Translations under genes and position numbers: made by a program
IMG/VR virus record: IMGVR_UViG_3300021513_000001
Location: 1 to 64,000 of that record
Length of the DNA: 64,000 bases
Reading direction: 5' to 3' (one strand)
Origin: a virus
Notes under the pieces: generated by a model
The model's input: the letters and a program-made list of their open reading frames with translations, nothing else
Told to the model about the DNA's origin: nothing
Databases searched by the model: none
In this document: piece by piece, positions 5,675-35,936 of the stretch
Layout: each line of letters begins with the position of its first letter
Position numbering within the stretch: the stretch's first letter is position 1

Positions 5675-5677
5675 GTT

Positions 5678-6448: not shown

Positions 6449-6482
6449 TTCTATGTGTTATATCTTTATTTTATTTTTTTTT

Positions 6483-9029: not shown

Positions 9030-9103
9030 TTATATTTCTTCCAATCTACTAAAAAATTTTCTAACTTGCGTTTTTATATAATCTAACATGACAAATTCTC
9101 ATA

Positions 9104-9979: not shown

Positions 9980-9982
9980 ATT

Positions 9983-10141
9983 TTATTTTATAATATCATT
10001 TATTTCATTAGTTATTTTTTCTAAATCTTTATCAAACAGTTTATTAAATATTTTCTTTGACATATTTTTTTTCTTGATATAATCAAGAGCTATAGATGAA
10101 GATTTAATTTTAAGTATTGTCTTTATTTTTTTTTCTATCAT
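9983..10141 (-). CDS. Small lysine-rich hypothetical protein
   Basis: This 52-residue frame starts at the ATG at 10141 inside the 3' end of the preceding gene (a TTG or GTG start upstream would lengthen it slightly). It is mostly charged helix with many lysines (IEKKIKTILKIKSSS, KKIFNKLFDKDLEKI), possibly a coiled coil. The ribosome binding site is poor. Its conserved position between two real genes with a small overlap is the main support. Confidence 0.42.
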   Translation of the reverse strand: MIEKKIKTILKIKSSSIALDYIKKKNMSKKIFNKLFDKDLEKITNEINDIIK

Positions 10142-10427
10142 CTGTAAAATCCGACCAACACACACCAGTTATCAACCCATCGTCTTCAATTATAAAACCC
10201 AGCCTCTCATCACATAAACAATCAGTTATAGTAGCAATTATAGACAGAGTACTAATGCCTACGTCATCATAATTAAAAACAAGATCCCCATCATTATCAC
10301 GTATAAAATAATAGGCTATACCCAATTTTTGCATATCTTTTTCTGCACTTAATAGTTTATTTTTATCCAATGCAGCATAGAATTTGTTAATGTCTTCATA
10401 ATAAATTGGTTCTGATAATTTAATCAT
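10110..10427 (-). CDS. Hypothetical protein, about 105 residues
   Basis: No family is recognised. The ATG at 10427 is chosen; a GTG seven codons earlier (10448) is possible and neither has a strong ribosome binding site. The protein is acidic, with a central alternating stretch (IAYYFIRDNDGDLVFNYDD) and a C-terminal DDGLITGVCWSDF. It lies downstream of the methylase gene and overlaps the next small gene. Confidence 0.55.
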   Translation of the reverse strand: MIKLSEPIYYEDINKFYAALDKNKLLSAEKDMQKLGIAYYFIRDNDGDLVFNYDDVGISTLSIIATITDCLCDERLGFIIEDDGLITGVCWSDFTDDRKKNKDNT

Positions 10428-10480
10428 TTTATTAATTATATTCAACACTTCTTGTTTTCTTTTTTCAATTCTATACCCCT

Positions 10481-11263
10481 TTAATGGTAGTTTTTAATTA
10501 TTAAATGTTGATTTCCGCTATCTCCACTTATCCTACCAGAATGAATTTTAAACATATATTTCTTAAAATAAGAATCTACAATGTACCCACTATAAAGTCT
10601 TCTTATTAGTTCGCTATCGCCTATAATCATTAGACATTTGTTTTTAGTAGATTTAAATAAATCAGCTAACCTTTCTTGGTGTTCTTTACCAAACTGGCAA
10701 TAACCATAATTTTTAAATACAGAATCATATGGTGGATCTAAAAAAACAAAATTGTTTTCATCATTATATTCATTAAAAATTTTTTCAAAAGAAGCTAGTT
10801 TTACATCGGTTCGTTTTAATAATTCAGTGTATCTTGAGTCTTTTATTAATTCGTAATTTACTGTTTTATAACGCCCCCACGGTATATTAAATTTACCACT
10901 TTTATTATACCTTAGCATGCCTCTAAAAGCTGTTTTACGTAAATAAAAAAATCTACTTGCTTCTTCAATTTTAGTTTTAACATCCATTTCGTCTCTTACA
11001 AAATAATAAAAAGCCTCATCTATATCCCATTTACAAACCGTTCTATATATTTCAAGAGCGTTTCCTTCCTTAATTTGTTGATAAAAATTTATTAATTCCT
11101 CGTGCACATCAGCAATGACATTTTTTTCAAAATTTAAATCAAAAAAGACAGAACCGCCCCCAACAAAAGGTTCTATATACCTATCAAAAGTTTTTGGGTA
11201 ATGGCGACAAAAGCGAGCTATTTCTCTACTTTTGCCACCACTCCACTTAATTATCGGGTTCAA
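10481..11263 (-). CDS. DNA N6-adenine methyltransferase, Dam (D12) family
   Basis: This 260-residue protein is an alpha-class adenine methyltransferase. It has the SAM-binding KWSGGKSREI at residues 6-15, FVGGGSVFFDL near 33-43, the KTAFRGMLRYNKSGKFNIPWG segment of Dam-family enzymes near 110-130, and catalytic DPPY near residue 175. The family includes Dam (GATC) and the methylases of DpnII- and EcoRV-type systems, so the target is not determined. The start is TTG at 11263 with AGGA nine bases upstream. It is 17 bases after a PD-(D/E)XK-like gene, suggesting a restriction-modification pair or protection from host nucleases. Confidence 0.9.
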   Translation of the reverse strand: MNPIIKWSGGKSREIARFCRHYPKTFDRYIEPFVGGGSVFFDLNFEKNVIADVHEELINFYQQIKEGNALEIYRTVCKWDIDEAFYYFVRDEMDVKTKIEEASRFFYLRKTAFRGMLRYNKSGKFNIPWGRYKTVNYELIKDSRYTELLKRTDVKLASFEKIFNEYNDENNFVFLDPPYDSVFKNYGYCQFGKEHQERLADLFKSTKNKCLMIIGDSELIRRLYSGYIVDSYFKKYMFKIHSGRISGDSGNQHLIIKNYH

Positions 11264-11280
11264 ATTAACAATCCTAAATG

Positions 11281-12105
11281 CTAAATAGCATATTTAATTT
11301 TTTGTTCTGATTTATCTTTGTTAAGTATACTAAAATATGTTTGTAGTAACTCATCACCCAAAGTAGCATGAAAAGCTTCCCACTCTTCTTTAGTTACATT
11401 TATATTAAAAAACTTAAAGAAATCAACATATCCAACAATATACTGCTTTTTAATAGCTTTAAAATCAGAATTTAATTTTACTATATCATCAACATGTGGA
11501 TATCTTAAAGATACAAAACTAACCTTTGTATTAATATTATTTTTATTATAAAACTTTTTTAAAGCAATACTTAAAAGATCTAATTTTTCTATTACTTTAG
11601 CTGTCTTTTCTGTATCTAAATTAAAATTATATTTAAGTTCACTAATAAAATAAGTATTATCTTTGCGTATTGCAACATCTAATTGAACAGTTCTATCTAA
11701 AAAACCTTTTATTAACGGACTAATTTCACTAGAAACATCTTCGTATTTAGACGTAAGATATTTTCTAATAGCAGATTCTACAGCATTACCAACTCTGATA
11801 AGCAATGTTTGTTTTGGAAAAAACGGAAGAGATGAAAACAAAATTTCATTTAGAGAACCTTGTTCTTTATTTGCATTTTTAATAATATTTTCTATTATTT
11901 TTTCAGATTTTACTTTATTTCTTACTTCGCTAATAATACAATTTTTAAGCTCATCGAATGATTCTTTTGGATCTTCAATATATATATCACCTATTGAACT
12001 TTCAGATTGTTGTTCTACTACCAACCTATATAATCCAACCATTCTAGAACTTAAACCCTTTAACCTTGTAAATTCATTCATAAAATCACGACCTTCAGTT
12101 TTCAT
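11281..12105 (-). CDS. PD-(D/E)XK-like protein, candidate restriction endonuclease
   Basis: This 274-residue protein begins at the ATG at 12105, which has a strong AAAGGAG; an earlier in-frame start adds 19 residues without one. A candidate nuclease core lies near residues 145-190: a helix with RVGNAVESAIRKYL, then LDVAIRKDNTYFISELKYN, where Asp and Glu-x-Lys are spaced as in PD-(D/E)XK active sites. No specific restriction family is recognised. Being directly upstream of a Dam-family methylase is the usual layout of a type II system. Alternatives are a host-DNA-degrading nuclease or an inactive relative. Confidence 0.6.
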   Translation of the reverse strand: MKTEGRDFMNEFTRLKGLSSRMVGLYRLVVEQQSESSIGDIYIEDPKESFDELKNCIISEVRNKVKSEKIIENIIKNANKEQGSLNEILFSSLPFFPKQTLLIRVGNAVESAIRKYLTSKYEDVSSEISPLIKGFLDRTVQLDVAIRKDNTYFISELKYNFNLDTEKTAKVIEKLDLLSIALKKFYNKNNINTKVSFVSLRYPHVDDIVKLNSDFKAIKKQYIVGYVDFFKFFNINVTKEEWEAFHATLGDELLQTYFSILNKDKSEQKIKYAI

Positions 12106-12170
12106 AATAAAACTCCTTTTAGAAATAGTATTTAAAACATACCCAAAGGGGTAAAACGCCAATTTAACAA

Positions 12171-13055
12171 TTATTTTTTAGCAAATCTTAAACTTCCTGT
12201 CCAATTCTCTAATTTTGGGCTAAAAACTTTGTAATCGTTATATTGCGGAGTAGCAGAAGCCTTATAAAGTTTATTGGCATCTAAAATAATTTCACGTAAA
12301 TTCTCTAAACGACTATAAAAAGATTTGCCTGGAATAACACCACCCGGCCTATTTTTTCCAGTAAACCCTATGTGCTGAGAGCGGTTAACTTCCGGCATAA
12401 TAACATAACCATCCTCTTGTATATGATTTATATCAACACATCTATTTATCAATCCGGCTTGCTCTACATGAGCAAGTTTCTGATATTTATATAATTTATT
12501 GCCTTTATACTGCTTATCGAGATGTGCTATATATCCATATGTATCATTATAATATCTTGGTAAAGAATTAGGATAAACATAATCCAAATAAAACTTTTTA
12601 AATATTGTCGTACAAATGGCTGCATAATGATACCCTTTATAAAGTACATGGACATCTCCATTATCATCTTTATTAAACGAAGATATTATACTTGCTTTTT
12701 CTATTTCAGGCATATTTAATATTATATCTAAATATTTAAAAAAAGTTTTATGAGGCAACACGTCATCTTCTATGTATAAAACATAATCACTTGTCAAATT
12801 AAAAGCGTCTTTAAATCCCTCTAATATATTAGTAGTTAGTCCTAATTTTGTTTGTCTAAAAATACAATAACTTTTTGCTGGGTACTGTTTTATAATATCT
12901 ATACATATTGGGTCTGCGCCATGTTCTATAATAAACAAAGTAAGTAAGCTGTCTGAAAACTTATAATAATTTCTTGCTTCAATTTCTGCTTCTATGCTAA
13001 GATAAAGCATTTCTGGCCGATTATATACTGGTCGCATAAGTATTTGTGTAGCCAC
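12171..13055 (-). CDS. GT-A-fold glycosyltransferase
   Basis: This 294-residue protein has the GT-A pattern: RPVYNRPEMLYLSIEAEIEA at the N-terminus, a DxD-like metal site YIEDDV near residue 94-99, and a late RSQHIGFTGKNRPG segment recalling GT13/GT2-like enzymes. The start is GTG at 13055 with AGGAG nine bases upstream. It may be an inverting transferase; donor and acceptor are unknown. Confidence 0.75.
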   Translation of the reverse strand: MATQILMRPVYNRPEMLYLSIEAEIEARNYYKFSDSLLTLFIIEHGADPICIDIIKQYPAKSYCIFRQTKLGLTTNILEGFKDAFNLTSDYVLYIEDDVLPHKTFFKYLDIILNMPEIEKASIISSFNKDDNGDVHVLYKGYHYAAICTTIFKKFYLDYVYPNSLPRYYNDTYGYIAHLDKQYKGNKLYKYQKLAHVEQAGLINRCVDINHIQEDGYVIMPEVNRSQHIGFTGKNRPGGVIPGKSFYSRLENLREIILDANKLYKASATPQYNDYKVFSPKLENWTGSLRFAKK

Positions 13056-13093
13056 TTTAACTACTCCTAAAAACTGTATATTTTTATAAAACT

Positions 13094-13276
13094 CTATATT
13101 TTATCTAGTTTACGTTTCCAATTATACATAGAGGCTTTGGGTTTAAACTCAAAAACTGTTTTACAATGTACACACATTATTGAAAAATTATCACAAACTT
13201 TCCAAACATCTCCTTTACAGTTTGGACAAACTAAAAAAGTTGCAACAACTTCCGGATGTCTCCTTATTATACTCAT
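13094..13276 (-). CDS. Zinc-ribbon-like small protein
   Basis: This 60-residue protein contains two CxxC knuckles (CPNC near residue 17 and CVHC near 35), as in zinc ribbons, plus an aromatic/basic tail (MYNWKRKLDKI). The ATG at 13276 is preferred because GGAG lies 10 bases upstream and because the preceding 51-codon gene ends five bases before it. Role unknown; nucleic-acid binding is plausible. Confidence 0.6.
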   Translation of the reverse strand: MSIIRRHPEVVATFLVCPNCKGDVWKVCDNFSIMCVHCKTVFEFKPKASMYNWKRKLDKI

Positions 13277-13280
13277 TGTA

Positions 13281-13436
13281 TCAATCTCCGGTTGTTTTAA
13301 AAAAAGCCTTAGCAAACCTACGAATTACTTCTAACTCATATTGACTCAAAACATTACCAATACCTTCAATCCAATCTCCTATTTCTATATTATCAAAATC
13401 TTCAATAGTTGCCTTATTCATATAAATTTTTTTCAT
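13281..13436 (-). CDS. Hypothetical protein, 51 residues
   Basis: An open frame from the ATG at 13436 reads MKKIYMNKATIEDFDNIEIG then DWIEGIGNVLSQYELEVIRR and FAKAFFKTTGD, ending in TGA. It fills the gap between a glycosyltransferase gene (stop at 13439) and the zinc-ribbon-like gene, and its 3' end contains that gene's ribosome binding site. AGGAG lies in the preceding gene end at wide spacing. A second ATG at codon 6 is possible. No family is recognised. Confidence 0.55.
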   Translation of the reverse strand: MKKIYMNKATIEDFDNIEIGDWIEGIGNVLSQYELEVIRRFAKAFFKTTGD

Positions 13437-13438
13437 AA

Positions 13439-14572
13439 CTATTTTTTAGCTCCTACAACTTTTTTTAAAGTTTCAATATATAACTGGCCTATAATCTGAT
13501 AATTAAAATATTTAATTACATGTTCTTTAGCAGATAAACCCGTTTTTTTAGCCTCGTTTTTATGTTCATATATATACTTCATTATATCAGAAGCTTGTTT
13601 AACATCAGCTTGTGCCCAACACTGATCTGAAACATACCAAGGAGTATTAATCATTCCAAACACAGGAGTTAAAACATAATCAATTAAATAACTATTATTT
13701 TTATTTAAAAATTGATTTACTCCGCCATATCCAGTTACTATAGAAGGATTCCCAACCGCAGATGCTTCAGCAATAGGTAATCCAAAACCTTCTCCTCTGT
13801 TCAAACTAACAAAACAATCACCAAACTTATGTAATTCTAATATTTCTCTATTAGATAATATATCTAATATTAAATACACTCTAGCATAATTTTTTCCTTT
13901 TGGAAGTATTATACTTTCCTTTATTTTTTTAATTGTTTGTATAACAATATTTTGTTCCTGTTCTGAATAACCATACCTATAAACCTTAAGAACCAACGCT
14001 ACGTTGTCTTCACCACTAAAAGCATGCCAATATGCTCTAAGAAGAGAAACTGGGTCTTTCTTTTCAACCATCTGAAACACAGAATAAAAAATATAATCAT
14101 CTTTTTGTGGGCCATTCATAATAAATTTACCAATGCCATTAAACTGCGTGGTATCTATAATGTGAGGAACACAATATATAGGAACAGTCACCCCACTATT
14201 ACTAAATACTTCAACATTCCACTTACACGGAACAAGTATAGCATCCATGCTATTACAATAATTTATCCAATCATGTGGTATCTTATCAGTCTCCCATACA
14301 GTATATCCTATATTTATTTTTCCTTCTTCTCTATATAAAGGATAGTGTTCTGGAGTTAAATGTATTAAATTAACATCATAATCTATTCGCCTGTTTATAT
14401 AACTTGATAAATAATCTCCAAGTTTTCCAAGATCTGGCCGTTGTTGTTCAAAACTAACAGGTGATAATGTAAGATCAACACCTTGTTCTATCAAAGCTTT
14501 TATATAATGTCTAGCACAAGAACCATAACCACTACCGTCTAGTATAGAACCCCAATATTTTATTTTTAACAT
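13439..14572 (-). CDS. GT4-type (GT-B) glycosyltransferase
   Basis: This 377-residue protein resembles large-phage and bacterial GT4 enzymes: an N-terminal GSGYGSCARHYIKAL acceptor loop, a VWETDKIP segment, VFQMVEKKDPVSLLRAYW near the interdomain region, and the E-x7-E signature NRGEGFGLPIAEASAVGNP near residues 255-273. It is related in layout to the intein-containing transferase at 15105-17561. Its start is 11 bases after repeat copy A, and the repeat end contributes the weak ribosome binding site (CGGA). Confidence 0.86.
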   Translation of the reverse strand: MLKIKYWGSILDGSGYGSCARHYIKALIEQGVDLTLSPVSFEQQRPDLGKLGDYLSSYINRRIDYDVNLIHLTPEHYPLYREEGKINIGYTVWETDKIPHDWINYCNSMDAILVPCKWNVEVFSNSGVTVPIYCVPHIIDTTQFNGIGKFIMNGPQKDDYIFYSVFQMVEKKDPVSLLRAYWHAFSGEDNVALVLKVYRYGYSEQEQNIVIQTIKKIKESIILPKGKNYARVYLILDILSNREILELHKFGDCFVSLNRGEGFGLPIAEASAVGNPSIVTGYGGVNQFLNKNNSYLIDYVLTPVFGMINTPWYVSDQCWAQADVKQASDIMKYIYEHKNEAKKTGLSAKEHVIKYFNYQIIGQLYIETLKKVVGAKK

Positions 14573-14582
14573 AATTAAATCC

Positions 14583-14651
14583 GATGCTTTTTTGTTAACT
14601 TACGTTAACAAATGCACCACTCTCCTTTTTCAGAGTGATGGGGGCATCTCC
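14583..14651 (-). repeat. Dispersed hairpin repeat, copy A (with tnpB 3' end)
   Basis: One of three copies (others at 19975 and 27749) of an element read on the minus strand. The core GGAGAGTGGTGCATTTG leads into a perfect hairpin, TTGTTAAC-GTAA-GTTAACAA (14592-14611), then A6 and GCA. A second small stem CACTCT/AGAGTG spans 14618-14637. The repeat is about 75-80 percent identical to copy B by eye over 69 bases. It ends 11 bases before the start codon at 14572. Confidence 0.8.
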
Positions 14652-14717
14652 CAAAACTCGCAATAAAATGTTGCGAGTGCCATTAATGTCTCTATCGATC
14701 TTGTTTTTTTTAAAATG
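14595..14717 (-). pseudogene. TnpB C-terminal relic (IS200/IS605-type)
   Basis: A 40-codon open stretch ends in TAA and encodes KIDRDINGTRNILLRVLGD followed by APITLKKESGAFVNVS. The DRDxNGxRNI pattern is the RuvC-III catalytic segment near the C-terminus of TnpB, the RNA-guided nuclease of IS200/IS605 elements. An in-frame stop lies at 14718-14720 and no further TnpB sequence is recognisable upstream, so the gene is a remnant. Within it, an 8-base inverted repeat ACTCGCAA/TTGCGAGT (14656-14678) could form an RNA stem. Farther upstream, TGTATC/GATACA near 14725-14770 form another. Confidence 0.72.
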
Positions 14718-14796
14718 TTAATGTATCAGCAACAGTTAATTAGCCTTTATAAATTTCTAATGATACACCCACGATCGAAGGCCGGGAATTACGTGA

Positions 14797-15024
14797 CTAA
14801 ATTTGTTCATCATCAAGTTCGTTTATTCCACATATTTTGACCATATCCCATAACAAAACATAATCCTTTTTTTCTAAATAATGACAATAACCATAAGAAC
14901 AACCATCGTCATCTTCACCATACTCCCAATATGGACACGGTTTTATTTTGTATTTACCGTCTTTAAATCCAAGAGATGTATAACAATAATCACCATAAGG
15001 TATTTCTGCAATTTTTTTACTCAT
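14797..15024 (-). CDS. Cys-rich hypothetical protein (CPYW type)
   Basis: This 75-residue protein has the pattern K-P-C-P-Y-W, then C-x5-C-H-Y-L and LLWDMVKICGIN. Small proteins of this pattern occur in phages and bacteria, without a known function. A good ribosome binding site (AAAAGGA) precedes the ATG. It is the first gene after the sigma-54-type promoter at 15060-15076, and the tnpB relic and repeat copy A follow it on the same message. Confidence 0.65.
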   Translation of the reverse strand: MSKKIAEIPYGDYCYTSLGFKDGKYKIKPCPYWEYGEDDDGCSYGYCHYLEKKDYVLLWDMVKICGINELDDEQI

Positions 15025-15059
15025 ATAAAAATCCTTTTAATATAACTTTATTTTATTGT

Positions 15060-15076
15060 ACGCAATTTCTATGCCA
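15060..15076 (-). promoter_or_regulatory. Sigma-54-type -24/-12 promoter (site 3)
   Basis: The minus strand reads TGGCATAGAAATTGCGT, with GG and GC separated by 10 bases. It lies in the 80-base gap between the intein-containing glycosyltransferase and the 75-residue gene. The predicted start near 15050 leaves a short leader with the ribosome binding site and would drive the downstream glycan genes. Confidence 0.72.
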
Positions 15077-15104
15077 AATCTTGAAAACTTGTATCCCCAA
15101 AATA

Positions 15105-17561
15105 TTAAATACTCACAGATTTAAACGGTTTAATTACTTCAGTATTTGTTACTGTAAACTGTGATTTAAATATATTAGATGCTTCATTAAATAAATTAAT
15201 CCATTTAGGTACAATACTACGTTCCCAGGTTAAATTATTTATAACATACTTATAAGCCGCCTCTGCTTTTTCTTTAGCCTCTTCTGGATTATTTATAACA
15301 TGATTCATAACTTTAACAAGATGATCTATATCAACTAAAGGTCTTAAAACCTCATTATCGTTTGGTAAAATAGTATATAAATTTTCATTTGTTCCTGAAT
15401 CTACCAAATAAGCTATATCATCATTTATTAATTCAGGAATCATTGTATTATTTGGCATAATAACGGGTTTTTTTGTTGCCATACCTTCAATCCAAGAGTT
15501 ATGAACTATCATATTTTCTGCTACAAAATTATTAGTATTTTCGACTTGAATATCTACAAGAGTTCCCCTATACGGAACTTTATTAATTGTTTTGATAGGC
15601 AAAAGTAAATATTTTTTATTTTGACTACATTTTTCGCCATTATATACACGATCAGAAATAATGTTAGGTTCTATATTAAACATTTTTAATAATTTTCTTT
15701 TTGAAATACCAGAAACATTTACCTTATATTCAACCCTACTAGTTCTCACAGAACTTAGTATTCCTAGCTTTGCTAAAATTAATCTAAGACCGTAAGCTAC
15801 GTGTTTTGAAGTAGTCGAAAAAGTCATCTCATAATCTGTTTTACAATAACAACCATCACCAATAAACTCACCATTAACAAATTCGATTAAATACTCTAAC
15901 GGTTGATTCAATAAAATAGATGGTATTTTTTTATTTCTAGCCCCATGATCAAACAAATTATAAAATAAATTTGCAACAACAGACGAATAAAATCTAATAG
16001 TTTGACAACCATATTTATTGCCACGACTTTTGTTATCTGTATAATAAACATTTAACCCAAAAACCTTTTTCATTTCATTCGCTACAAATTCAATTATATT
16101 TGTTTCTTTTTTATTAAAACTAAATAAAATACTATCTTTTTTAGAAGCACTAACGCACCCTTCAGCCAAATATAAACCAAATAAACGCATAAGTGTTTTT
16201 GTTATTTTTATTTTTTTAGGTATAAAAATACCAGCATTTTCAATAAAATTAGAAGTTAGCCTAAACATGTCCCCTGTTTCTTCTAAATTTAATATTTGTC
16301 TTGCGTTTAAAGTTTGTGTAACTATATCATATATATCTAATTCGCTTTTTGTTTCAAAATGTTTCTTTGGAAATAATAAATTATCTCCTATTTTTAAATT
16401 CTCAGCTTTTTTCCATATATATTCTCCATTTTCAAAAACTTTAAAACCATGCTCTGGAGAAGTTTTTAATGGTATATTAGATAACCACGTAGTTATTTCA
16501 TAAAGATCACCATCAAAATCTCTCGACATTATTGCTCGAACTTTATTATAAGTTCCGTCATCAGACAAAACTTTATCTTGTATTGTAATATCTCCAATCT
16601 CTTTAAGCCCTTCTTCCGTATATATTGTTGAATGATTACAAATACATAAACCAAAACCTTCTCCTAACGCAGTACTAACAACACAATCACAAGAATTATA
16701 CAAAATATTAACAACTGGAACAGGATATCCCTGATTTGGGCCAAAATTTTGTGGAAATACTACATCTGTTTTAGTACTTAAACCTAAAACTTCACAGACT
16801 TTATCTAATCGCCACCCCTGATCTCTTACTGCCATGTGACAATAAGCTAAAACATTCGAATTAGTTTCTTTTACTTGTTTATATGCTCTTATAAATCTTG
16901 GAATATCTTTTCTTTGTTGATTTCTATTTAAATTACAAAAAATAAACTTATCTGCTTGAGGACCAAAGTATCTTTTCCTAAAATCTACTGCTTCTTGATC
17001 CTGTCTTGGGTAAAAATCTTTATCATTAACCCCGTGATAAATAACTCTAATATTTTTTTTAGTCGCAGTATCACCAAGAGCCAATAATGTAGCATCTTTA
17101 GCAAACTGAGTATAAGCTACAGGAATATCAACCGAAGTTACTGCCTCTGCCCAAGACTTTTTAATAATAGAGTCACATGGATAATAACACAAACTAACAA
17201 ATTTCTTTCCTTGCGCTTTTAATTGCGGAATATATTCTGTAAGAAACTGCAAAATAAAAGAATCTTGCAAAAAAAACAAGATATCAAACTCCATATGTTT
17301 AGCCATTTCCATAAACTTTTTTCTTCCATAAGGATCATGCTCTGAATTTAAACCGGCAGGCCAAATATTAAACACCTGTGTTAATGGTGGAGCAGGTGAT
17401 CCCCAGTAGTTAATTGCAAAAATATCAATATCATATTTACCTGTTTCATATAGCCCTGTAAAAATATTCTTAGCCACTGTTCCAAAACCAGTCGCCACAG
17501 TAGGGCTATCGCAATAAGCCAAAATTTTTAATTTCTTTTGTTGTCTTGGTTGATTAAACAT
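15105..17561 (-). CDS. GT4-type glycosyltransferase containing an intein
   Basis: The 818-residue precursor has a 435-residue extein that is a GT-B glycosyltransferase: TVATGFGTVAKNIF at the N-terminus, YHGVNDKDFYP near residue 175, and FCNLNRNQQRKDIPRFIRAY near 208-227. The extein signature ALGEGFGL-SWIEGMATKKP is broken after Leu305 by an intein (residues 306-688). This is the E-x7-E nucleotide-sugar-binding motif, so splicing should be required for activity. AAGGAG precedes the ATG. It is likely a cytoplasmic sugar transferase of the same glycan pathway as the 2320-14572 cluster. Confidence 0.9.
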   Translation of the reverse strand: MFNQPRQQKKLKILAYCDSPTVATGFGTVAKNIFTGLYETGKYDIDIFAINYWGSPAPPLTQVFNIWPAGLNSEHDPYGRKKFMEMAKHMEFDILFFLQDSFILQFLTEYIPQLKAQGKKFVSLCYYPCDSIIKKSWAEAVTSVDIPVAYTQFAKDATLLALGDTATKKNIRVIYHGVNDKDFYPRQDQEAVDFRKRYFGPQADKFIFCNLNRNQQRKDIPRFIRAYKQVKETNSNVLAYCHMAVRDQGWRLDKVCEVLGLSTKTDVVFPQNFGPNQGYPVPVVNILYNSCDCVVSTALGEGFGLCICNHSTIYTEEGLKEIGDITIQDKVLSDDGTYNKVRAIMSRDFDGDLYEITTWLSNIPLKTSPEHGFKVFENGEYIWKKAENLKIGDNLLFPKKHFETKSELDIYDIVTQTLNARQILNLEETGDMFRLTSNFIENAGIFIPKKIKITKTLMRLFGLYLAEGCVSASKKDSILFSFNKKETNIIEFVANEMKKVFGLNVYYTDNKSRGNKYGCQTIRFYSSVVANLFYNLFDHGARNKKIPSILLNQPLEYLIEFVNGEFIGDGCYCKTDYEMTFSTTSKHVAYGLRLILAKLGILSSVRTSRVEYKVNVSGISKRKLLKMFNIEPNIISDRVYNGEKCSQNKKYLLLPIKTINKVPYRGTLVDIQVENTNNFVAENMIVHNSWIEGMATKKPVIMPNNTMIPELINDDIAYLVDSGTNENLYTILPNDNEVLRPLVDIDHLVKVMNHVINNPEEAKEKAEAAYKYVINNLTWERSIVPKWINLFNEASNIFKSQFTVTNTEVIKPFKSVSI
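15498..16646 (-). other. Intein with LAGLIDADG (DOD) homing endonuclease
   Basis: This 383-residue in-frame insertion begins at Cys306 (CICNHSTIYTEEGLKEIGD, the N-terminal splicing block) and has a block B TSPEHGF near residue 368. It ends FVAENMIVHN with His687-Asn688, followed by Ser689 as the +1 nucleophile, so it is a class 1 intein. Two LAGLIDADG helices are seen, LFGLYLAEG near residues 460-468 and LIEFVNGEFIGDG near 558-570, each with its acidic residue, so the homing nuclease looks intact. All splicing residues appear present. Confidence 0.93.
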
Positions 17562-17596
17562 AAAACTTTCTCCTTAACAATAATCATTTATAATAT

Positions 17597-18733
17597 TTAT
17601 TTTTTCTTCCTACGAATATCTAAAATAGAAGTAGTATAACTAACATTTGAAATAGCATCTGCCTCTTCTTTAGTAATTATCTTCTTTTTAATAAGATCAT
17701 TTAATTTCTTATTTACAACACTAACACATTTAACTAAATCATCAGCACCTACAATACTATATAAAGCATAAGGATCATAACTAATCCTGGGTATTTGTCT
17801 TGTAAAAATATTGAATTCGTCTGTAACTATTTTATTATTATTCGAAGCATTAATTTTTTTAACTAAAATACTTTTAATTTCTTTCATTTTTAACTCTAAA
17901 CTTTTAACCAAAATACGCATCTTATCATATGCATCTGCCAAAGCATTTTCATCATCAAAAATATGATGATCTGGTATATTATCCTTTATTTCTTTTATAG
18001 CAGGGCACACATTTATATACTCACACCAAGGACAAAATTTATTAAGCTCTGGTTTTAAATCTTTCTTTTTTGCCTTTAAAATTAATTCATAATTAGTTTT
18101 TAATAATTGAATAAAAGAATACCTCTGTTCTTCTGTTCTTTCACTATATTTTGGAAAAAATCTTAAATAATCTAAACATACAATATATTTACTATAATCA
18201 GGAAAGAGTACTCTCGCCGCAGAATCATACAAAGAAAGCTGAATATCTACATTAATTTCATTATCAGTAAGAACACTATGCGATGTTTTGTAATCTATAA
18301 CACACAAAGTACTATTGTTAAACTCAACTACTTTATCCATAGCCCCTATAACAGGAACACCGGCAACTTCAACTTTAAAATTTTTTTCTAATGTTATAAT
18401 CTTTTGATTAAATTCAAATTTATCTAATTTCGATAAAAGCAAATTAAGACCATCAAAAATAACAGCTTCATCACCAATATTTAAACGAGAACACTCAGAC
18501 ATATAAACTCTAACTATTTTATCTATATCGTTCTCATCAAAACTTTTTAATGATTTAGTTTTAACTAAGCTTCCTGCGTATTCTAAAGCAGCATGATCAG
18601 CAAGACCCATAGTTAAATAATCCTCATTTTCTTTTACAGGTTTGGCCTGAAATTTATGATAAATACAACCATATTTATATTTACATTGTAGCCATGTTCT
18701 TAATCTTGATGCTGATAAAGCAGATATTTTCAT
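17597..18733 (-). CDS. Cas4/RecB-like PD-(D/E)XK exonuclease with Fe-S cysteines
   Basis: This 378-residue protein matches the PDDEXK_1 (Cas4/AddB/RecB nuclease) group. The N-terminal LSASRLRTWLQCKYKYGC holds Cys17; the catalytic region has GAMDKVVEF and CVIDYKTSHS near residues 125-150, followed by the QLSLYDSAARVLF helix; and the C-terminal CPWCEYINVCP near 233-243 completes the usual Fe-S cysteine set. It likely degrades or resects DNA ends during recombination. A strong AGGAG precedes the ATG, and it sits with DnaJ and SSB in the replication region. Confidence 0.85.
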   Translation of the reverse strand: MKISALSASRLRTWLQCKYKYGCIYHKFQAKPVKENEDYLTMGLADHAALEYAGSLVKTKSLKSFDENDIDKIVRVYMSECSRLNIGDEAVIFDGLNLLLSKLDKFEFNQKIITLEKNFKVEVAGVPVIGAMDKVVEFNNSTLCVIDYKTSHSVLTDNEINVDIQLSLYDSAARVLFPDYSKYIVCLDYLRFFPKYSERTEEQRYSFIQLLKTNYELILKAKKKDLKPELNKFCPWCEYINVCPAIKEIKDNIPDHHIFDDENALADAYDKMRILVKSLELKMKEIKSILVKKINASNNNKIVTDEFNIFTRQIPRISYDPYALYSIVGADDLVKCVSVVNKKLNDLIKKKIITKEEADAISNVSYTTSILDIRRKKK

Positions 18734-27956: not shown

Positions 27957-30900
27957 ATGTCAGTATCTCTAAACACAAATATTGATAAAATTGTTTTCAC
28001 TTCACCTAATATGCCAAGCCCAAGCCCAGCAGGCTTACGTTCGCACATAATACCAACACAAACAGATTTAGGTACCTGGTATGAATCAGGCGCAACAATG
28101 ATCAGAGTTGCTTTTGCACAAAATATTTATGATCTCTCATATAACACTGGAATAGACAGACCTGTTTTTGGTATATCAGGCATAGTTACCTCAGATACCT
28201 CATTTGTAGAAAATCAAACAAACATAATATATGTAAATACAGACCAAACCTGGTCACTATCTCTACCAAGAAATGCTTATATAGATGACAACAGCTGGTT
28301 TGTAGTAACAGATATTTCAGAATATGATTATGCTGACTCTCCACCAAATGAAGACTCTTTTTTAAAAAACAGCTTTACATCTTCTGGTACTTTAAACTCA
28401 ACAAGAGATATAATAATAAATGGCTGTGCTACATATATGGAACAGTACAATTATATTTTTAATACAAACCAACTATACAAATATGATCCTTCTACAGAAC
28501 AATATAACTTAGTATCTCAATGTCCTTATAATATAAGTTACCCAGTAACAATGCTTGGCGTTAGTGGAACATTACACATATTTTATCTAGACACAGAAAA
28601 CAGCTTAATAAAAAACATACAATATAACACGGATACATCAACATGGAATACTAAAAGCAACCACGAATATTATTCCTCTGCTTCCTCATTAACCGCTTTA
28701 AAAGCCGTTTTTTTAGACGATACAATAAAAATTACACTAAAATACAGTGAAAACTCTGTTCCCCCAAACTTATATATTTATAGTTATATTCCAACTTCTG
28801 ATTCATGGAGCAGCACTTTTATAGCAACATGCGGATACTACAATCTTAATTTTAATAATGCAATTATAGAATGTAATAGCACACATTTATTTTCATTAGA
28901 AAGATCATCAAAACTCCTACACAAAATAGACCTTGATACAAAAACTGATGATCAAATGATTATAAAATATGAAACTTCAGACAAAAGTTCTTCAATATTA
29001 AAAGATAATTATTTATATACTTACATTGAAAATTCTAACAAATTTACAAAAATAAACATAAATACAAAAGAAAATTACATCCTTACATCGCCAACAATAT
29101 CAGGAACAGATGCAACAATACCAAACGAGTCTACTACATTATCTACAAACGGCACAGACTTGTTTTTAAGTCTAAATAAAGGCGTTAGTTGGGATTCTCA
29201 AACAAATTTATACAAATATAGTATAAGCGAGGACTTGTGGTCAGAAATAAATGTTCCAAAAGCAGGTAGCGTATTCTTTAATGGAAAAATGTGCAAATAT
29301 GAAAATAATATATATGGAACTGATGATGAAAATTTATACAAATATGATACTACAAACAATAAGTGGGTTGTACTTACAACGTTACCAAGAACAGATGCTT
29401 TTGATTCAATAATAGCAGCAAACTCTACACATATATATATAATAATATCAGAATGCGGTTATTTTTGGAGATATGATTTAACAACAAGTACTTGGGAAGT
29501 ATTACAAAGCATTTCTTTGCCTGCACCGCTATCTTATGAAGGAACATGTCCAGGAAGTTTGCTTATAGATGGTAATATTATATATTTAGGTTTATATTAT
29601 AATTATGTATTATCTACAAGAGACACTTTTTATTATAAATATAACATATCTGAAGGAACCTGGTCTGCTTATGTAGCCCCTAAAACTAGTACAAACAGAT
29701 CATTTTATATGTTATTTTATAAATCTGGAAGTGATATACATTTAGCCGGGGATATTTCATACACAGGAAATCCAGTAGATACATATACATATAGAGATCA
29801 TAAATGTACAAGTTTAGAAAACAATACTTGGGAAGTTAATAAAGCAGTAACTATAAATGCTATAAGCCAAGAAAAATATATATGTATGTACGGTCAATAC
29901 TATTTAAATAATAAAATTTATATTAGTTTTACAACAGCTACTAACTTAGGTTTTGTATGTAGTGGGCCAACATGTAGACAAATAGATGTATCAACAGGAA
30001 CGTCAGATTACTGGATGATAAACCCGATAGACAAACATTACATAATATCTGACCCAAACGATGTCAATTTATATTGTGCTTCAGTAACTAATGGAATATT
30101 ATACAATTACAGCACAGCTTCTGGCACAACAACAAAACTTTCTGTACCAAGAAAATCATTTGTAAATTATTATATATGTAAAAACGGAAGCAACGACTAC
30201 CTTCTTGGGAAACAGGAAATAGAATACGATCCAGATCTATACAACTATAAATTTTATGTATACAAATATAATACGGGATCTTGGGATGAGTACGATGTTA
30301 AAGAAATAACCTGTACCTCTGGGACTTTAAAATTAAACACAATACAAGAATACTATAATCTAGACAATACTGTGTACATGGCCTCTTTTATAAGAAATAC
30401 TAAAAATTTAGATGTTTCTGAAGCAAAACATAAAAAATACAACATACCAAACAAAATACTTGATGATTTCTCTGCTCCGGAATTAACAACCTCGATAACA
30501 TCATCCGGAACAAATTTATTTCTAGCAATAGGAAATACAATTAAAAAATATTACACAGAAACAGAAAATACAGAACTGTTTCAAGAAGGTATAGCAGGAA
30601 ATAGATCATCTTCTTTTCCATACACTTACAAACACAATGGAAAATTAAGAGTTACAGGAAACCAATATTTTACACCTACGGACGGTGGAAAATTTATAAC
30701 GTATGAAGAACCAACAGGAAGTGGGAACTGGTCAATTGTAGATTCCAAAAACACACCCTCTTCGTTATACAACACTTTAGACTATGCAGAAAAAAACAAC
30801 GAACTATATATAATAAACACAACAGAACAAATAATTTTAGATTTAAACACTTTAAATCTAGAGTATGTAGCTAACGCCCCTTACTCAACACTGTGTTCTA

Positions 30901-32546
30901 CAACTTCTTCTGGAATTATAGTATATAACGATCACTATGCATGTCCAACTTATGTATATTATAATAATACTTTTTCTGAAATTCCAAGTGACACTGCAAA
31001 AACAAACAAATCATCCAACCTATTATTCATAAATAATAAAATATACTTTACAAAAAACAGCGTAACAAATGAAATTTCTCTAATAGACACTGTATCTGGA
31101 ACAAGTTCTATAATATATGACAATAAAACAGTTGGAGAAACTCCGTTTTTATTTAGTGTAAACAATACAGTGTATATATTACAACCTGAGTATAAAACAT
31201 TATCAACGATAAGCGGTAGCAACATTACAACAATAAAAAATAACTTAGATATTGAAGAACATACATTTGCCTGCTCAGATAACACAGATACAATATATTT
31301 TGCAAAAGGAAAAAATTATTATTCTTTTTACAAATTTGTTATAAGTAGCGGAACAGTAACACAACTAAACAATATACCAGAACATGGAACAACGCATTCT
31401 TCTCTAGAGTTTTATAACAACAAACTTTATTATATAACGTCAAATAGATTATATTTGTATAACATTTCAACAAACAATTGGGACTCTTCTACATATTTAC
31501 CAGAAGAAATATACTCAAAAGGAATAAAAATAGACGAAAAACACATATATTATTGTGGTAATACAAGCATACGCCGTATAAATAGAAACCATCCAGAAAC
31601 AAACGGAGCGGTCTTTTCTCCTATTCCTTTTAGACACCACTCTTCTTGTTACTTTTCTGGTACAGATATTTATTTACATTACAACACAGAAAATATACCT
31701 TTTGAATGTACCGCTTTAATAGGAAATGAAAATATAACAACATTTAATTTAAACAACATTAGTCATCTTTTGCCATCTGCTGTTCCTTATAACTTTAATC
31801 TAATATCAAATATAGAAAAAGAGGTTGAATTCACTTGGGAAATATCATCTACCATGAACATAACACACTATAGAGTATATAGAAGTGAAGCTGAGACAGG
31901 ATTACGCAACTACATAGGAAAAACTACAACGTTGTCCTTTAAAGACGCCCTTTCAGATAGAGGAAAAACATACTACTACTTTGTTAAATCTTGCAATGAG
32001 TATGGAGATTCTGATTCGTTCTCTTCTCCATACGAAATAACAGTAGCAGGAAACTCATATAAATATGCGCTAACAGTTAGCAGCTGGGAAAATAGAAAAA
32101 AAGAAATAACTCAGCTACCTTCATCTGGTCTTTATATTTGGGGAAATAGTAACTTAACTTTTGAAAATACTGTTAGAATAAATATAACTTTTGGAGAAAT
32201 ATACAATTGTTACTTAACTGCTTGGGACGATTCATCGCATACCTCTACAAATAATATCTTACTTTCAAACGAATGCTATAGAATAGCCGCTGTAGCTTTT
32301 GCAACCAAAGAAGATACCACACTTACCGAGCCAGATATTAAAGCGATGTACTATAAACCAGAATTCAATAAAATATTAAAAGGAAACGATAGCTATTACG
32401 GTAAATTTTCAATAAATTATGAAGCTTTGCCAAATAGATATGGCGCATATGTTATATTTAAACCAATACTAATAAATATACCAGAAAGCCAACTAAACAA
32501 GGGTATTTATGAATTTAAAACTGCTTTTCATTATCAATATACTTAA
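27957..32546 (+). CDS. Giant kelch-like/FN3 virion-type protein
   Basis: This 1529-residue protein has long kelch-like beta-propeller repeats from about residue 150 to 1260 (recurring LYKYDTTNNKW, LYKYSISEDLWSEI, LYLYNISTNNWDSS), a fibronectin type III domain near 1271-1366 (FTWEISSTMNITHYRVYRS, GKTYYYFVKSCNEYG) and a distinct C-terminal domain. No signal peptide is seen. The many Tyr, Ser, Asn and SGT turns resemble phage surface fibres. It is on the plus strand, opposite the other giant proteins, and shares its repeat pattern with the protein at 48241-53451. AAGG precedes the ATG. A receptor-binding or decoration role is inferred. Confidence 0.72.
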   Translation: MSVSLNTNIDKIVFTSPNMPSPSPAGLRSHIIPTQTDLGTWYESGATMIRVAFAQNIYDLSYNTGIDRPVFGISGIVTSDTSFVENQTNIIYVNTDQTWSLSLPRNAYIDDNSWFVVTDISEYDYADSPPNEDSFLKNSFTSSGTLNSTRDIIINGCATYMEQYNYIFNTNQLYKYDPSTEQYNLVSQCPYNISYPVTMLGVSGTLHIFYLDTENSLIKNIQYNTDTSTWNTKSNHEYYSSASSLTALKAVFLDDTIKITLKYSENSVPPNLYIYSYIPTSDSWSSTFIATCGYYNLNFNNAIIECNSTHLFSLERSSKLLHKIDLDTKTDDQMIIKYETSDKSSSILKDNYLYTYIENSNKFTKININTKENYILTSPTISGTDATIPNESTTLSTNGTDLFLSLNKGVSWDSQTNLYKYSISEDLWSEINVPKAGSVFFNGKMCKYENNIYGTDDENLYKYDTTNNKWVVLTTLPRTDAFDSIIAANSTHIYIIISECGYFWRYDLTTSTWEVLQSISLPAPLSYEGTCPGSLLIDGNIIYLGLYYNYVLSTRDTFYYKYNISEGTWSAYVAPKTSTNRSFYMLFYKSGSDIHLAGDISYTGNPVDTYTYRDHKCTSLENNTWEVNKAVTINAISQEKYICMYGQYYLNNKIYISFTTATNLGFVCSGPTCRQIDVSTGTSDYWMINPIDKHYIISDPNDVNLYCASVTNGILYNYSTASGTTTKLSVPRKSFVNYYICKNGSNDYLLGKQEIEYDPDLYNYKFYVYKYNTGSWDEYDVKEITCTSGTLKLNTIQEYYNLDNTVYMASFIRNTKNLDVSEAKHKKYNIPNKILDDFSAPELTTSITSSGTNLFLAIGNTIKKYYTETENTELFQEGIAGNRSSSFPYTYKHNGKLRVTGNQYFTPTDGGKFITYEEPTGSGNWSIVDSKNTPSSLYNTLDYAEKNNELYIINTTEQIILDLNTLNLEYVANAPYSTLCSTTSSGIIVYNDHYACPTYVYYNNTFSEIPSDTAKTNKSSNLLFINNKIYFTKNSVTNEISLIDTVSGTSSIIYDNKTVGETPFLFSVNNTVYILQPEYKTLSTISGSNITTIKNNLDIEEHTFACSDNTDTIYFAKGKNYYSFYKFVISSGTVTQLNNIPEHGTTHSSLEFYNNKLYYITSNRLYLYNISTNNWDSSTYLPEEIYSKGIKIDEKHIYYCGNTSIRRINRNHPETNGAVFSPIPFRHHSSCYFSGTDIYLHYNTENIPFECTALIGNENITTFNLNNISHLLPSAVPYNFNLISNIEKEVEFTWEISSTMNITHYRVYRSEAETGLRNYIGKTTTLSFKDALSDRGKTYYYFVKSCNEYGDSDSFSSPYEITVAGNSYKYALTVSSWENRKKEITQLPSSGLYIWGNSNLTFENTVRINITFGEIYNCYLTAWDDSSHTSTNNILLSNECYRIAAVAFATKEDTTLTEPDIKAMYYKPEFNKILKGNDSYYGKFSINYEALPNRYGAYVIFKPILINIPESQLNKGIYEFKTAFHYQYT

Positions 32547-32555: not shown

Positions 32556-32612
32556 AAAAGGGGAGAGCGTTTCTTACAAAGGCTAAGGTCTTTGAGCTTT
32601 TGACGCTAAAAT
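32556..32612 (+). other. Possible RNA double-stem after the giant gene
   Basis: Following AAAAGGGGAG, the gap contains nested inverted repeats AGCGT/ACGCT and CAAAG/CTTTG, followed by AAAATTTTT. It could be a terminator-like or leader structure before the 78-84 residue gene. The stems are only five base pairs each, and the strong ribosome-binding-like AAGGGGAG has no start codon at usual distance. Confidence 0.3.
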
Positions 32613-32854
32613 TTTTAATGAATACTATTAAAAAAGAAAATTTAAAAAAAGCATTATCAACAACTATAACCGTAGCCTCTCTTATGGAAATATTAGCACA
32701 ATATGATGGAAGATTTCCAGTATGTTTTATAGATAAAAAAAATAACATGCTGCCTATTACAAAAAAAGACATTGCTATGAAAAAAATAAACATACTACTT
32801 CCTAATCATTCACATATTTTTGATATAGCAGCTTTAGTAATTAATAAAAACTAA
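32600..32854 (+). CDS. Hypothetical small protein, 78-84 residues
   Basis: This plus-strand gene starts at either TTG 32600 (with AAGG upstream) or ATG 32618 (without a clear ribosome binding site). No family is recognised. It has a helical lysine-rich first third, then ITVASLMEILAQYDGRFPVCF and a C-terminal IFDIAALVINKN. It sits between the kelch protein and the papain-type protease. A frame on the opposite strand here is a shadow. Confidence 0.5.
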   Translation: MTLKFLMNTIKKENLKKALSTTITVASLMEILAQYDGRFPVCFIDKKNNMLPITKKDIAMKKINILLPNHSHIFDIAALVINKN

Positions 32855-32904: not shown

Positions 32905-33792
32905 ATGTTTAATTCTATAAAAATACAAAACACATTAATCAAGGGCGGTTGGATACCACAACTTCCAGATATTCGAGACTACACGATGGAAAACCCGAAA
33001 GTTTTTAAAGCCTACCAACGCGCTGGTATTTTCTGCGGAGATGACGAGGGTTTAACAATACCGCCACAAGTAGATATAAGTGAATTTGACAGTCCTATAG
33101 AAAATCAGGGCTCCCAAGGAACTTGCACAGCCAATGCCGGAGCTTCTTTATTAGAGCATTTAGAACGTAGAACATATGGTACTTATATAGAACATTCAAG
33201 AAAATTTTTATATAAAATGTCCAGACAATTACTTGGTCTAACTGGAGATGTTGGATCTACAATTCCGGCTACTCTTGGCTCTATAGTAATATTTGGTATG
33301 CCGCCAGAAAAATACTGGCCTTATACCAAAGGTGTTGATGACCAGCCTACTGCGTTTGTACATGGTTTAGCACAAAATTACCAAGGAACAAGCTACGTAA
33401 ATCTGTCTAAAACAGGTACAACTACAGCACAAATTTTATATAATATGAAAGTAAATTTAACTTCAGGATTACCAGTAATCTTTGGATTTTCTATGTATTC
33501 ATCAATAACCACCTGTGATGATGGCTACATAAAATATCCACTACCGGGTGAAACAACAGAAACAGGCCACTGTGTTTTAGCTGTCGGATTTAATGATACT
33601 GTTGAAATAAACAATGGAAGCTATACTTCTGTTGGTGCTTTTTATATAAAAAATAGTTGGGGAACTGGTTGGGGAATTAACGGGTACGGCTGGTTACCTT
33701 ATGATTATATTACAAACGGTATAGCTACTGACTGTTGGGTATTAATAAACAGCGAATGGATAGAACTTGGTCAATTCGGAATTTACCCCTAA
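32905..33792 (+). CDS. Papain-family (C1) cysteine protease
   Basis: This 295-residue protein is a C1A peptidase with a complete active site: oxyanion Gln68 and nucleophile Cys74 in ENQGSQGTCTANAG, His222 in TGHCVLAVGF, and Asn250 in YIKNSWGTGWGINGYG. The N-terminal GWIPQLPDIRDYT resembles bacterial members. There is no signal peptide and no long pro-region, so it may be virion-packaged or act in the infected cell. GGAG precedes the ATG. Its stop overlaps the stop of the convergent gene at 33789. It could process the neighbouring giant proteins or host proteins; this is inference. Confidence 0.93.
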   Translation: MFNSIKIQNTLIKGGWIPQLPDIRDYTMENPKVFKAYQRAGIFCGDDEGLTIPPQVDISEFDSPIENQGSQGTCTANAGASLLEHLERRTYGTYIEHSRKFLYKMSRQLLGLTGDVGSTIPATLGSIVIFGMPPEKYWPYTKGVDDQPTAFVHGLAQNYQGTSYVNLSKTGTTTAQILYNMKVNLTSGLPVIFGFSMYSSITTCDDGYIKYPLPGETTETGHCVLAVGFNDTVEINNGSYTSVGAFYIKNSWGTGWGINGYGWLPYDYITNGIATDCWVLINSEWIELGQFGIYP

Positions 33793-35936
33793 TTAGGAAC
33801 AGCGGATATATTACATTTTATATCTTGAATTCCACTAAAAACGCTTGTTCTTGATTTATGCAGAACATGATTAATACATGTTCCCATAAAAGATACAGAC
33901 CCAGATTTTAAATATGTAAACGGAGAATCTGAATATATAGGTTCTTTTACTATACCTTCTATTTTTGCATTTAGTTTTAAGTTTTTAACTACTGGTTGAA
34001 TTTTAGCTGTAAGTCTTTTGACACCAACTTTTCCTGATACCTTTAAAAGACCGTATCTTATAGCAGAATCAGTACTATCAAAATATAAATCATGTCTTAA
34101 ACTATACTCATAATTAAGACCTATATTAGAATTACGCTTAAACAAAAATGAAATTATAGGATCATTATAATTTTTAGAAAATACTTTACCATCTGAATAA
34201 TAAAGAGGTTTTTCTATATTTAAATAAACATCAACATAGTCAGACCATCTTTTTTTACAATCTTCAATTTCAACAAGCTCCTCAGTTAAAACTTTTTCAT
34301 TACTTCTTCCGTGTATTATTAATAATTTAGATCTTATAGTCGCACCTAAAGATAAATTATGAGGTTGTGCTTTTAGTAAAGCTTTTAAATTTGTCTGACC
34401 ATTAATTATTTTAAATGTAATATTTAATAAATTCTTAGAAAAAGCAGGCTTATATCTAACGCAATCAGAAATAGAAGTAGACATTTTAAAAGATAAAAAC
34501 TTAAACAACATGCTATATTTATTAGAATAATTTATTAGAACACCGAGGTTTTTTGTCCCACTATACATAACTTTAATTCCGTTTATTAATGCTTTCAAAT
34601 CATAAACAGGTATCGATAATATAGAAGACATTAAAGATTTATATGCTGATCTTGGAGTTCTTAATGTACACAAAGAGAATCCAACATATGCTCTAAGGTC
34701 AAAAGTATTAGCCGTACTAAACCTGTAAAACTCATTAAATATTATTTCCTTTACTTTAATATCCGCTTTTAAATCTATAGTTCCACCAGTAGATATTATG
34801 CTCGCCATAAGAGAAACGGCGCCTATAGAAAAAACAGATGATATTAAATCAAGACTTCTCCAACCAGATACTATCGCATATAAATTTTTATTTTGTTTTG
34901 TTCCAAACAAACCTAAAATATCTGCATCTAAATTCTTATACCCGCCACCGGATATTATCTTAGCATTTAAATACTGCGGCAACGTTTTAGAACTTATCAC
35001 TGCATAAAGATCTCTATTTGCCCAACCTACAATTGAACCTTTCAACAAATAAATAGGATCACATACAATAGTTGACACAAAATTAGAATAACTACGATTA
35101 AAACAATTAATCTTTGAAGTAATATCAAAAATATGCTGATTAACTATACCAGCTGATAAATTATAACTACCAAACTTAATTGTTTTAATAATAGTATGAA
35201 GATCTTTTGGATAATGACCCGCTATAGTTACAAAAAGACTACGTTCTTCTCTTACTGCTATTTTTGCTAAAAGATCAAAAACAGCCCAACCCTGTAAACT
35301 CGCTAACAAATCTTTATAAGGCCACACTTTAATATATGATGATAAATCCTTTGGCAGCACTGCTTTTATATTAGCACTTATGTATTCTTCAACATAAGGT
35401 TGAATTAAAGTATTTAAATCTATATCATCGTAATACCAGCCTCTTATTATACCTTTATATTGGTCTGTTCCTTTTCTACTCGCCCTTAAAGCCCCTATTA
35501 AATTTAAAGGCTCAATCATGTCTATGTTTGTAAACAAATCTACGCTATCTGCCTGTTTCCACATTCTTAAAAAAGAGTTTAAATCAAAAAAATCTAACAT
35601 AAAATTTCTTATAAAACTTTTTAAATTTTTTTCTCCAAGTAAAAAAGTATTAATATAAGCTCTAAGATTTTCATTAAAAAACAAATCTTCAGACACAATA
35701 AAAGCATTAAGATCTTTAATTGTTTGTTCAAAACTTCTTAAATTAGCTGCTAAATTTAATGGTTGCCCTGTACTATATCCAACAAATAAAATCTTTGTAA
35801 GTTTTTTAAGCCCCTTAGAAGTTCCAATTATTACATTTTCTACTTTCCATAGACCGGTTTTATGCTCAGCACAAGCCCTATCTTTTGGGTTTACAGCATC
35901 TATTAAGCTTTTTAATATACTCGTTCCGCTAGACAT
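33789..35936 (-). CDS. Repetitive virion-type protein with L-x-A-x-I repeats
   Basis: This 715-residue protein consists largely of degenerate repeats of roughly 20-30 residues containing D/N-L-x-A-x-I (for example NLAANLRSF, DLNAFIVS, NLRAYINTF, DLYAVISS, NLDADILGLFG, NLYAIVSGW, DLKADIKV). The pattern suggests a repetitive solenoid or fibre. The last 150 residues depart from it and contain more Tyr and Lys. No enzyme motif is seen. It directly follows (TAA-ATG) the 1617-residue giant gene and ends the structural run, converging on the protease gene. Confidence 0.65.
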   Translation of the reverse strand: MSSGTSILKSLIDAVNPKDRACAEHKTGLWKVENVIIGTSKGLKKLTKILFVGYSTGQPLNLAANLRSFEQTIKDLNAFIVSEDLFFNENLRAYINTFLLGEKNLKSFIRNFMLDFFDLNSFLRMWKQADSVDLFTNIDMIEPLNLIGALRASRKGTDQYKGIIRGWYYDDIDLNTLIQPYVEEYISANIKAVLPKDLSSYIKVWPYKDLLASLQGWAVFDLLAKIAVREERSLFVTIAGHYPKDLHTIIKTIKFGSYNLSAGIVNQHIFDITSKINCFNRSYSNFVSTIVCDPIYLLKGSIVGWANRDLYAVISSKTLPQYLNAKIISGGGYKNLDADILGLFGTKQNKNLYAIVSGWRSLDLISSVFSIGAVSLMASIISTGGTIDLKADIKVKEIIFNEFYRFSTANTFDLRAYVGFSLCTLRTPRSAYKSLMSSILSIPVYDLKALINGIKVMYSGTKNLGVLINYSNKYSMLFKFLSFKMSTSISDCVRYKPAFSKNLLNITFKIINGQTNLKALLKAQPHNLSLGATIRSKLLIIHGRSNEKVLTEELVEIEDCKKRWSDYVDVYLNIEKPLYYSDGKVFSKNYNDPIISFLFKRNSNIGLNYEYSLRHDLYFDSTDSAIRYGLLKVSGKVGVKRLTAKIQPVVKNLKLNAKIEGIVKEPIYSDSPFTYLKSGSVSFMGTCINHVLHKSRTSVFSGIQDIKCNISAVPN

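What the first reader, a model, noticed from the sequence alone, without database searches (positions are those of the whole stretch)
32905..33792. Complete papain-type protease next to giant surface proteins
Seen directly: Gln68, Cys74, His222 and Asn250 are all present in C1A context, without a signal peptide or long pro-region. Papain-family enzymes are rare in phages; capsid proteases are usually serine types. It lies between a plus-strand kelch protein and the convergent structural operon. Inference: virion maturation of the giant fibres, or attack on a host protein.
Basis: partly seen in the sequence, partly recalled or inferred. Interest (0 to 1): 0.62.

Follow-up and report, generated by a model that had tools for sequence, protein, structure and literature searches.

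The report
Bacterial-type papain-like protease in a phage
This phage carries an intact-looking copy of a common bacterial papain-like protein-cutting enzyme (the xylellain type), probably picked up from bacteria as an accessory gene; this is already known to happen in phages, and its target here is still a guess.

Summary
Window 32905-33792 (+) encodes a 295-aa C1A peptidase with Gln68, Cys74, His222 and Asn250. Pfam Peptidase_C1 E=1.7e-11. The predicted fold (pLDDT 84, pTM 0.85) matches xylellain 3ois at Z 30.1.

Two details need correcting. The first ~50 residues are not blank: they carry the motif GWxxxxPDxRD, nearly as conserved in relatives as the catalytic residues. Rarity is relative: 3 of 50,697 GenBank phage records match, but at least 416 IMG/VR stretches and at least 570 in cellular genomes do. 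Acquisition of xylellain-type C1A peptidases by tailed phages is already published (PMC10380794).

No consistent role emerges. In some phages the enzyme is fused to, or sits beside, cell-wall lysis enzymes; in one clade it is linked to tail-fibre/LamG proteins; most neighbours are unrelated. A small-membrane-gene enrichment did not replicate in held-out loci. Fibre maturation is therefore poorly supported.

Best reading: an accessory, bacterially derived endopeptidase made with a tail-like adhesin and directed at host proteins. Enzyme identity is near certain; the role is inferred. Ordinary to mildly interesting.

The parts
32905..33792 (+). Xylellain-type C1A (papain family) cysteine peptidase, 295 aa; oxyanion Gln68, nucleophile Cys74, His222, Asn250
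32947..32982 (+). Codons for Gly15-Tyr26 (GWIPQLPDIRDY), the conserved N-terminal motif GWxxxxPDxRD of xylellain-type enzymes, in a ~52-residue N-terminal segment
   Evidence: structural superposition with 3ois from model residue 8
27957..32546 (+). Upstream co-directional 1529-aa virion-like protein (weak kelch signal); its N- and C-terminal segments are homologous to minus-strand ORF L005:11881-13488 (contig 75881-77488), which lies in the tail/structural gene block
   Evidence: (C-terminus 35% over 133 aa, E=1e-21; N-terminus 50% over 48 aa, E=3e-9)
32600..32854 (+). Small 84-aa ORF between the two; no family
33789..35936 (-). 715-aa last gene of the convergent minus-strand structural operon; its stop codon overlaps that of the protease; no family match

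Best explanation
The gene encodes a single-domain xylellain-type C1A endopeptidase with an intact catalytic set, which this phage lineage acquired from a bacterium or archaeon (shown: sequence, predicted fold, relatives; acquisition inferred from the tree). It is made without a secretion signal. The short N-terminal segment with the GWxxxxPDxRD motif probably lies against the body or active site, as in xylellain, and may act as an on-board restraint in place of a long propeptide (inferred). It is probably co-expressed with the upstream tail-like adhesin (inferred from shared strand and order; no transcription data). It most likely acts on host proteins, at the cell surface as a tail-linked enzyme or in the dying cell as an aid to takeover or lysis. 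It is an optional extra, not a core part of virion maturation (inferred).
For: Family and fold. All catalytic residues are kept in 141 homologues and the N-terminal motif in nearly all. The closest sequences are cellular, up to 48% identity from many phyla, and the protein branches at the base of the cellular clade, apart from the main 60-row phage group. Sporadic occurrence: 3 of 50,697 GenBank records with this query. No consistent neighbour across 108 dereplicated phage loci. Host-directed precedents in other phages: MMB025 fuses a C1A domain to a glycoside-hydrolase-like and a peptidoglycan-binding domain; THSA-485A places a distant C1A directly after its GH25 lysozyme, before a holin-like gene, with a similar C-terminal tail; L086/L087 fuse it to a LamG lectin domain.
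Against: No substrate, activity, timing or location is shown. The window gene is 31 kb from its phage's own lysozyme (1226-1627), so no lysis-cassette link exists here. The small-TM neighbour enrichment found first (37/188 vs 64/685, p=1.5e-4) did not replicate in held-out loci (21/131 vs 65/556, p=0.12). The MMB025 and THSA-485A copies are distant relatives of the window protein, so their context transfers weakly. The position of the window protein in the tree rests on a long branch (1.2) without strong support.
Confidence: 0.55

Rival explanations
1. Virion maturation protease: it trims the giant tail or fibre proteins during assembly.
For: It lies between a virion-like protein and the structural operon and is convergent with it. 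One well-supported phage clade (10 rows, SH-aLRT 99) is linked to tail-fibre/LamG genes, with one LamG fusion.
Against: The gene is sporadic and probably bacterially derived, unlike a core maturation protease. Large neighbours are not enriched overall (p=0.28). The kelch-like partner has no relative in IMG/VR by pattern scan, so co-occurrence cannot be tested.
Confidence: 0.12
2. Tail-borne surface protease: it is packaged on the virion with the adhesin and cuts host surface proteins at entry. (A more specific form of the best explanation.)
For: Same strand as and adjacent to a protein whose ends match a tail-block ORF; LamG-C1A fusion in L086/L087; a clear kelch protein directly upstream of a C1A gene in L046.
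Against: No attachment domain in the window protein; the kelch arrangement was found in only 1 other locus; the XacN1 C1 peptidase was not reported in virions, though it is a distant relative.
Confidence: 0.28
3. Lysis co-enzyme: released with the lysozyme, it degrades envelope proteins or peptidoglycan cross-links. (Another specific form of the best explanation.)
For: MMB025 fusion with peptidoglycan-binding modules; THSA-485A lysozyme-C1A-holin order; BFVD phage C1A models named 'Peptidoglycan binding-like' and 'N acetylmuramidase'; possible lysis-like neighbours in L013, L032, L037, L065.
Against: In this phage the gene is 31 kb from the lysozyme and on the other strand; the neighbour enrichment did not replicate.
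Confidence: 0.2
4. Neutral or decaying passenger gene with no role.
For: Sporadic distribution and a long branch.
Against: Full-length ORF, all catalytic and motif residues kept although no relative found exceeds 48% identity.
Confidence: 0.06

Closest known systems
Xylellain (Xylella fastidiosa cysteine protease, PDB 3ois), peptidase family C1A
   Same: Fold over model residues 8-285 (Z 30.1, 2.2 A, 35% identity over 244 residues), Gln/Cys/His/Asn set, short N-terminal segment, single domain
   Different: Encoded by a phage; loop lengths differ (for example residues 231-243 of the window protein, alignment); activity not measured
Short bacterial and archaeal C1A peptidases (loci L090-L169)
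   Same: Closest sequences, 39-48% identity, similar length, same N-terminal motif and a similar C-terminal EWxDxxxF-like tail
   Different: Cellular; no shared gene neighbourhood
Phage C1A peptidases (LR756511 huge phage, Burkholderia phage FLC9 gp163, THSA-485A Tsac_2838, MMB025 CDS0095, IMG/VR loci)
   Same: Same catalytic set and family; single-domain in most
   Different: Most fall in a separate phage group in the tree; some are fused to LamG or peptidoglycan-binding modules; contexts differ
NlpC/P60 and CHAP lysins of phages
   Same: Papain-like fold superfamily, cysteine nucleophile (established knowledge; also PMC10318531)
   Different: Peptidoglycan hydrolases of other families; no match to them in Pfam

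Membership tests
Peptidase family C1A (papain) | Oxyanion Gln, catalytic Cys downstream of it, His, and Asn in NSWG context | tested here: met
   Gln68, Cys74, His222, Asn250-Ser-Trp-Gly; the four are invariant in 141 homologues
Peptidase family C1A (papain) | Profile above curated cut-off over the catalytic domain | tested here: met
   PF00112 45 bits against 20.7, residues 53-274
Peptidase family C1A (papain) | Papain fold | tested here: met
   AF2 model pLDDT 84; 3ois Z 30.1, then mite and cathepsin C1A enzymes Z 21-24
Peptidase family C1A (papain) | Thiol-dependent proteolysis | not testable with these tools
   Needs purified protein
Xylellain-type short C1A | Short N-terminal segment with GWxxxxPDxRD instead of a cathepsin-type propeptide; no signal peptide | tested here: met
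   Motif at residues 15-25, kept in nearly all homologues; segment superposes on 3ois from its residue 25; signal peptide judged absent by reading the sequence, no predictor run
Phage lysis-cassette enzyme | Adjacent to holin, endolysin or spanin genes | tested here: not met
   Lysozyme at 1226-1627 and a small membrane-protein candidate at 966-1220, 31 kb away on the minus strand
Phage prohead or virion maturation protease | Conserved place in the head or tail assembly module and cleaved virion substrates | tested here: inconclusive
   No conserved tail adjacency overall, but no head genes were recognised on the contig and there are no proteomic data

The most novel reading that the evidence does not exclude
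Tailed phages repeatedly recruit bacterial xylellain-type proteases as host-envelope weapons, in some lineages as protein-cutting partners of the lysozyme and in others as enzymes tethered to tail lectins or adhesins; the window enzyme is a stand-alone, adhesin-paired version.
Probability: 0.25. Interest if true: 0.5.

Novelty: new member of a known kind. Interest (0 to 1): 0.27.

Why it matters
Peptidoglycan enzymes of phages are well studied, but protein-cutting enzymes aimed at the host envelope are not. A phage C1A peptidase with a short built-in N-terminal restraint would be easy to express and assay, and the many uncultivated relatives give a ready set for testing whether phages use proteolysis at entry or at lysis.

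Tried and rejected
Pattern scan of IMG/VR with the single protein found no relative; profile scans found hundreds. The kelch-like ORF gave no IMG/VR locus and no PDB sequence match. The closest related phage found (L227, 76% UvsX) has no C1A in its 52-kb record, but its contig ends just before the relevant region, so this shows nothing. A small-membrane-gene enrichment beside phage C1A genes looked significant at first (discovery set p=1.5e-4) but not in held-out loci (p=0.12), so I do not rely on it. Lipoprotein neighbours were too few and not homologous to each other. Neighbours of cellular homologues show no theme. Large-protein neighbours are not enriched. Promoter and terminator scans were at or near shuffle level. 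No Rfam or tRNA hits.

Full report
1. The observation. The ORF at 32905-33792 (+) is real and complete, 295 aa, with a ribosome-binding-site-like GGAG about 12 nt before the ATG. Pfam Peptidase_C1 matches at E=1.7e-11 over residues 53-274. The best solved relative is xylellain from Xylella fastidiosa (3ois, E=6.8e-27).

2. Fold. An AlphaFold2 model built from the window protein and 13 relatives has mean pLDDT 84 and pTM 0.85; residues 1-12 and 44-47 and the C-terminus are weak. Foldseek puts 3ois first (E 2-3e-20). VIA-align gives Z 30.1, 2.2 A over 244 residues for 3ois, against Z 23.8 for the next entry, a mite allergen. The alignment starts at model residue 8, so the N-terminal segment is also shared with xylellain. 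That this segment restrains the active site is an inference: the structure paper (Leite et al. 2013, title cited in PMC10380794) could not be read here.

3. Relatives. In an alignment of 72 phage and 69 cellular sequences the four catalytic residues never vary, and the motif GWxxxxPDxRD near the N-terminus is nearly as conserved. Among GenBank phages the family is scarce: 3 records with the window query and 12 with a huge-phage query, of 50,697.

4. Origin. In a quick tree the window protein branches at the base of the cellular clade (69 cellular and 9 phage rows), apart from a 60-row phage group; its branch is long and no starred set holds it. The cellular set was chosen for similarity to the query, so the tree is biased towards near cellular relatives. 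The closest sequences are cellular, at 44-48% identity. The simplest reading is acquisition from bacteria. Kordis and Turk (PMC10380794) already state that xylellain-type C1A peptidases were horizontally acquired by Myoviridae and Siphoviridae, so the kind is known.

5. Context in this phage. The contig is a 114,332-base IMG/VR record. Almost all genes run on the minus strand. The plus-strand unit consists of a 1529-aa protein, an 84-aa ORF and the protease. The 1529-aa protein is only weakly kelch-like (E=1e-5 to a kelch-annotated Erwinia phage protein), but its N- and C-termini are homologous to a minus-strand ORF in the tail block (L005:11881-13488, E=3e-9 and 1e-21). It is therefore probably a virion protein, and the protease is probably expressed with it. 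The phage has its own lysozyme at 1226-1627 (Phage_lysozyme E=8e-12), 31 kb away, so the protease is not in a lysis cassette here.

6. Context in other phages. I examined 108 dereplicated loci. No neighbour is constant. Large proteins (>=450 aa) are not enriched within two genes (35/318 against 111/1241, p=0.28). Small membrane proteins were enriched in the first set (37/188 against 64/685, p=1.5e-4) but not in the held-out set (21/131 against 65/556, p=0.12). Gene calls in these loci were mechanical. Individual cases are informative. Alicyclobacillus phage MMB025 fuses a C1A domain to Ig-like, glycoside-hydrolase-like and peptidoglycan-binding domains, with a holin-like gene next. Thermoanaerobacterium phage THSA-485A carries a GH25 lysozyme with peptidoglycan-binding domain, then a C1A peptidase, then a holin-like gene; by eye the lysozyme and the peptidase share a similar C-terminal tail (YTIVFDDQNQANLVAQVLGGKVRQIQ and YEIYFDDINKAKNVANLFKGNIKIN). 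In a 10-row phage clade (SH-aLRT 99) most neighbours are tail-fibre or LamG proteins, and in L086/L087 the peptidase is fused to a LamG domain. Locus L046 has a clear kelch protein directly upstream of the C1A gene (Pfam E=3.6e-16), the same order as in the window; it was the only one found.

7. Function. Xanthomonas phage XacN1 encodes a distant C1 peptidase (ORF382); its authors found a chitinase, a lipase and an M23 peptidase in virions and did not list ORF382 there (PMC5852040). With a sporadic, probably acquired gene and precedents linked to lysis enzymes and tail lectins, a host-directed role is more likely than a core role in virion maturation. Whether it works at entry or in the dying cell cannot be decided from sequence.

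8. Verdict. The enzyme is near certain, the family is known, and the role is open. New member of a known kind, interest 0.27.

Noticed in passing
window 27957-32546 (+) and L005:11881-13488 (-): Two ORFs on opposite strands share N-terminal (50% over 48 aa) and C-terminal (35% over 133 aa) segments but show no similarity in their middles, as in modular, exchangeable adhesins.
   Followed up: partly
window 15105-17561 (-): An 818-aa glycosyltransferase-like protein is about twice as long as its 409-aa relative in L227 (11057-12286); the extra middle reads like an intein with a homing endonuclease.
   Followed up: no
window 122-18733 (-): Many sugar and envelope genes by reading or profile: KdsC-like phosphatase, several glycosyltransferases, a pyruvyl-transferase-like protein, a hexapeptide acyltransferase-like protein and a B12-binding radical SAM-like protein; suggests a Gram-negative host and surface modification.
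   Followed up: no
L006:5369-19984 (-): A 4871-aa ORF that reads like a giant tape-measure protein.
   Followed up: no
L007:5867-6706 (-): A 279-aa ORF among tail genes that reads like a LAGLIDADG-type homing endonuclease.
   Followed up: no
L075:8967 and 9875 (+): Two C1A genes in tandem, beside an RNA-ligase-like gene of the T4 Rnl1/tail-fibre-attachment family; similar genes sit beside the C1A gene in L061, L062 and L072.
   Followed up: partly
L170:5080-5985 and 6001-6834 (+): Phage THSA-485A lysozyme and C1A peptidase end in similar ~26-residue tails, possibly a shared wall-binding module.
   Followed up: partly
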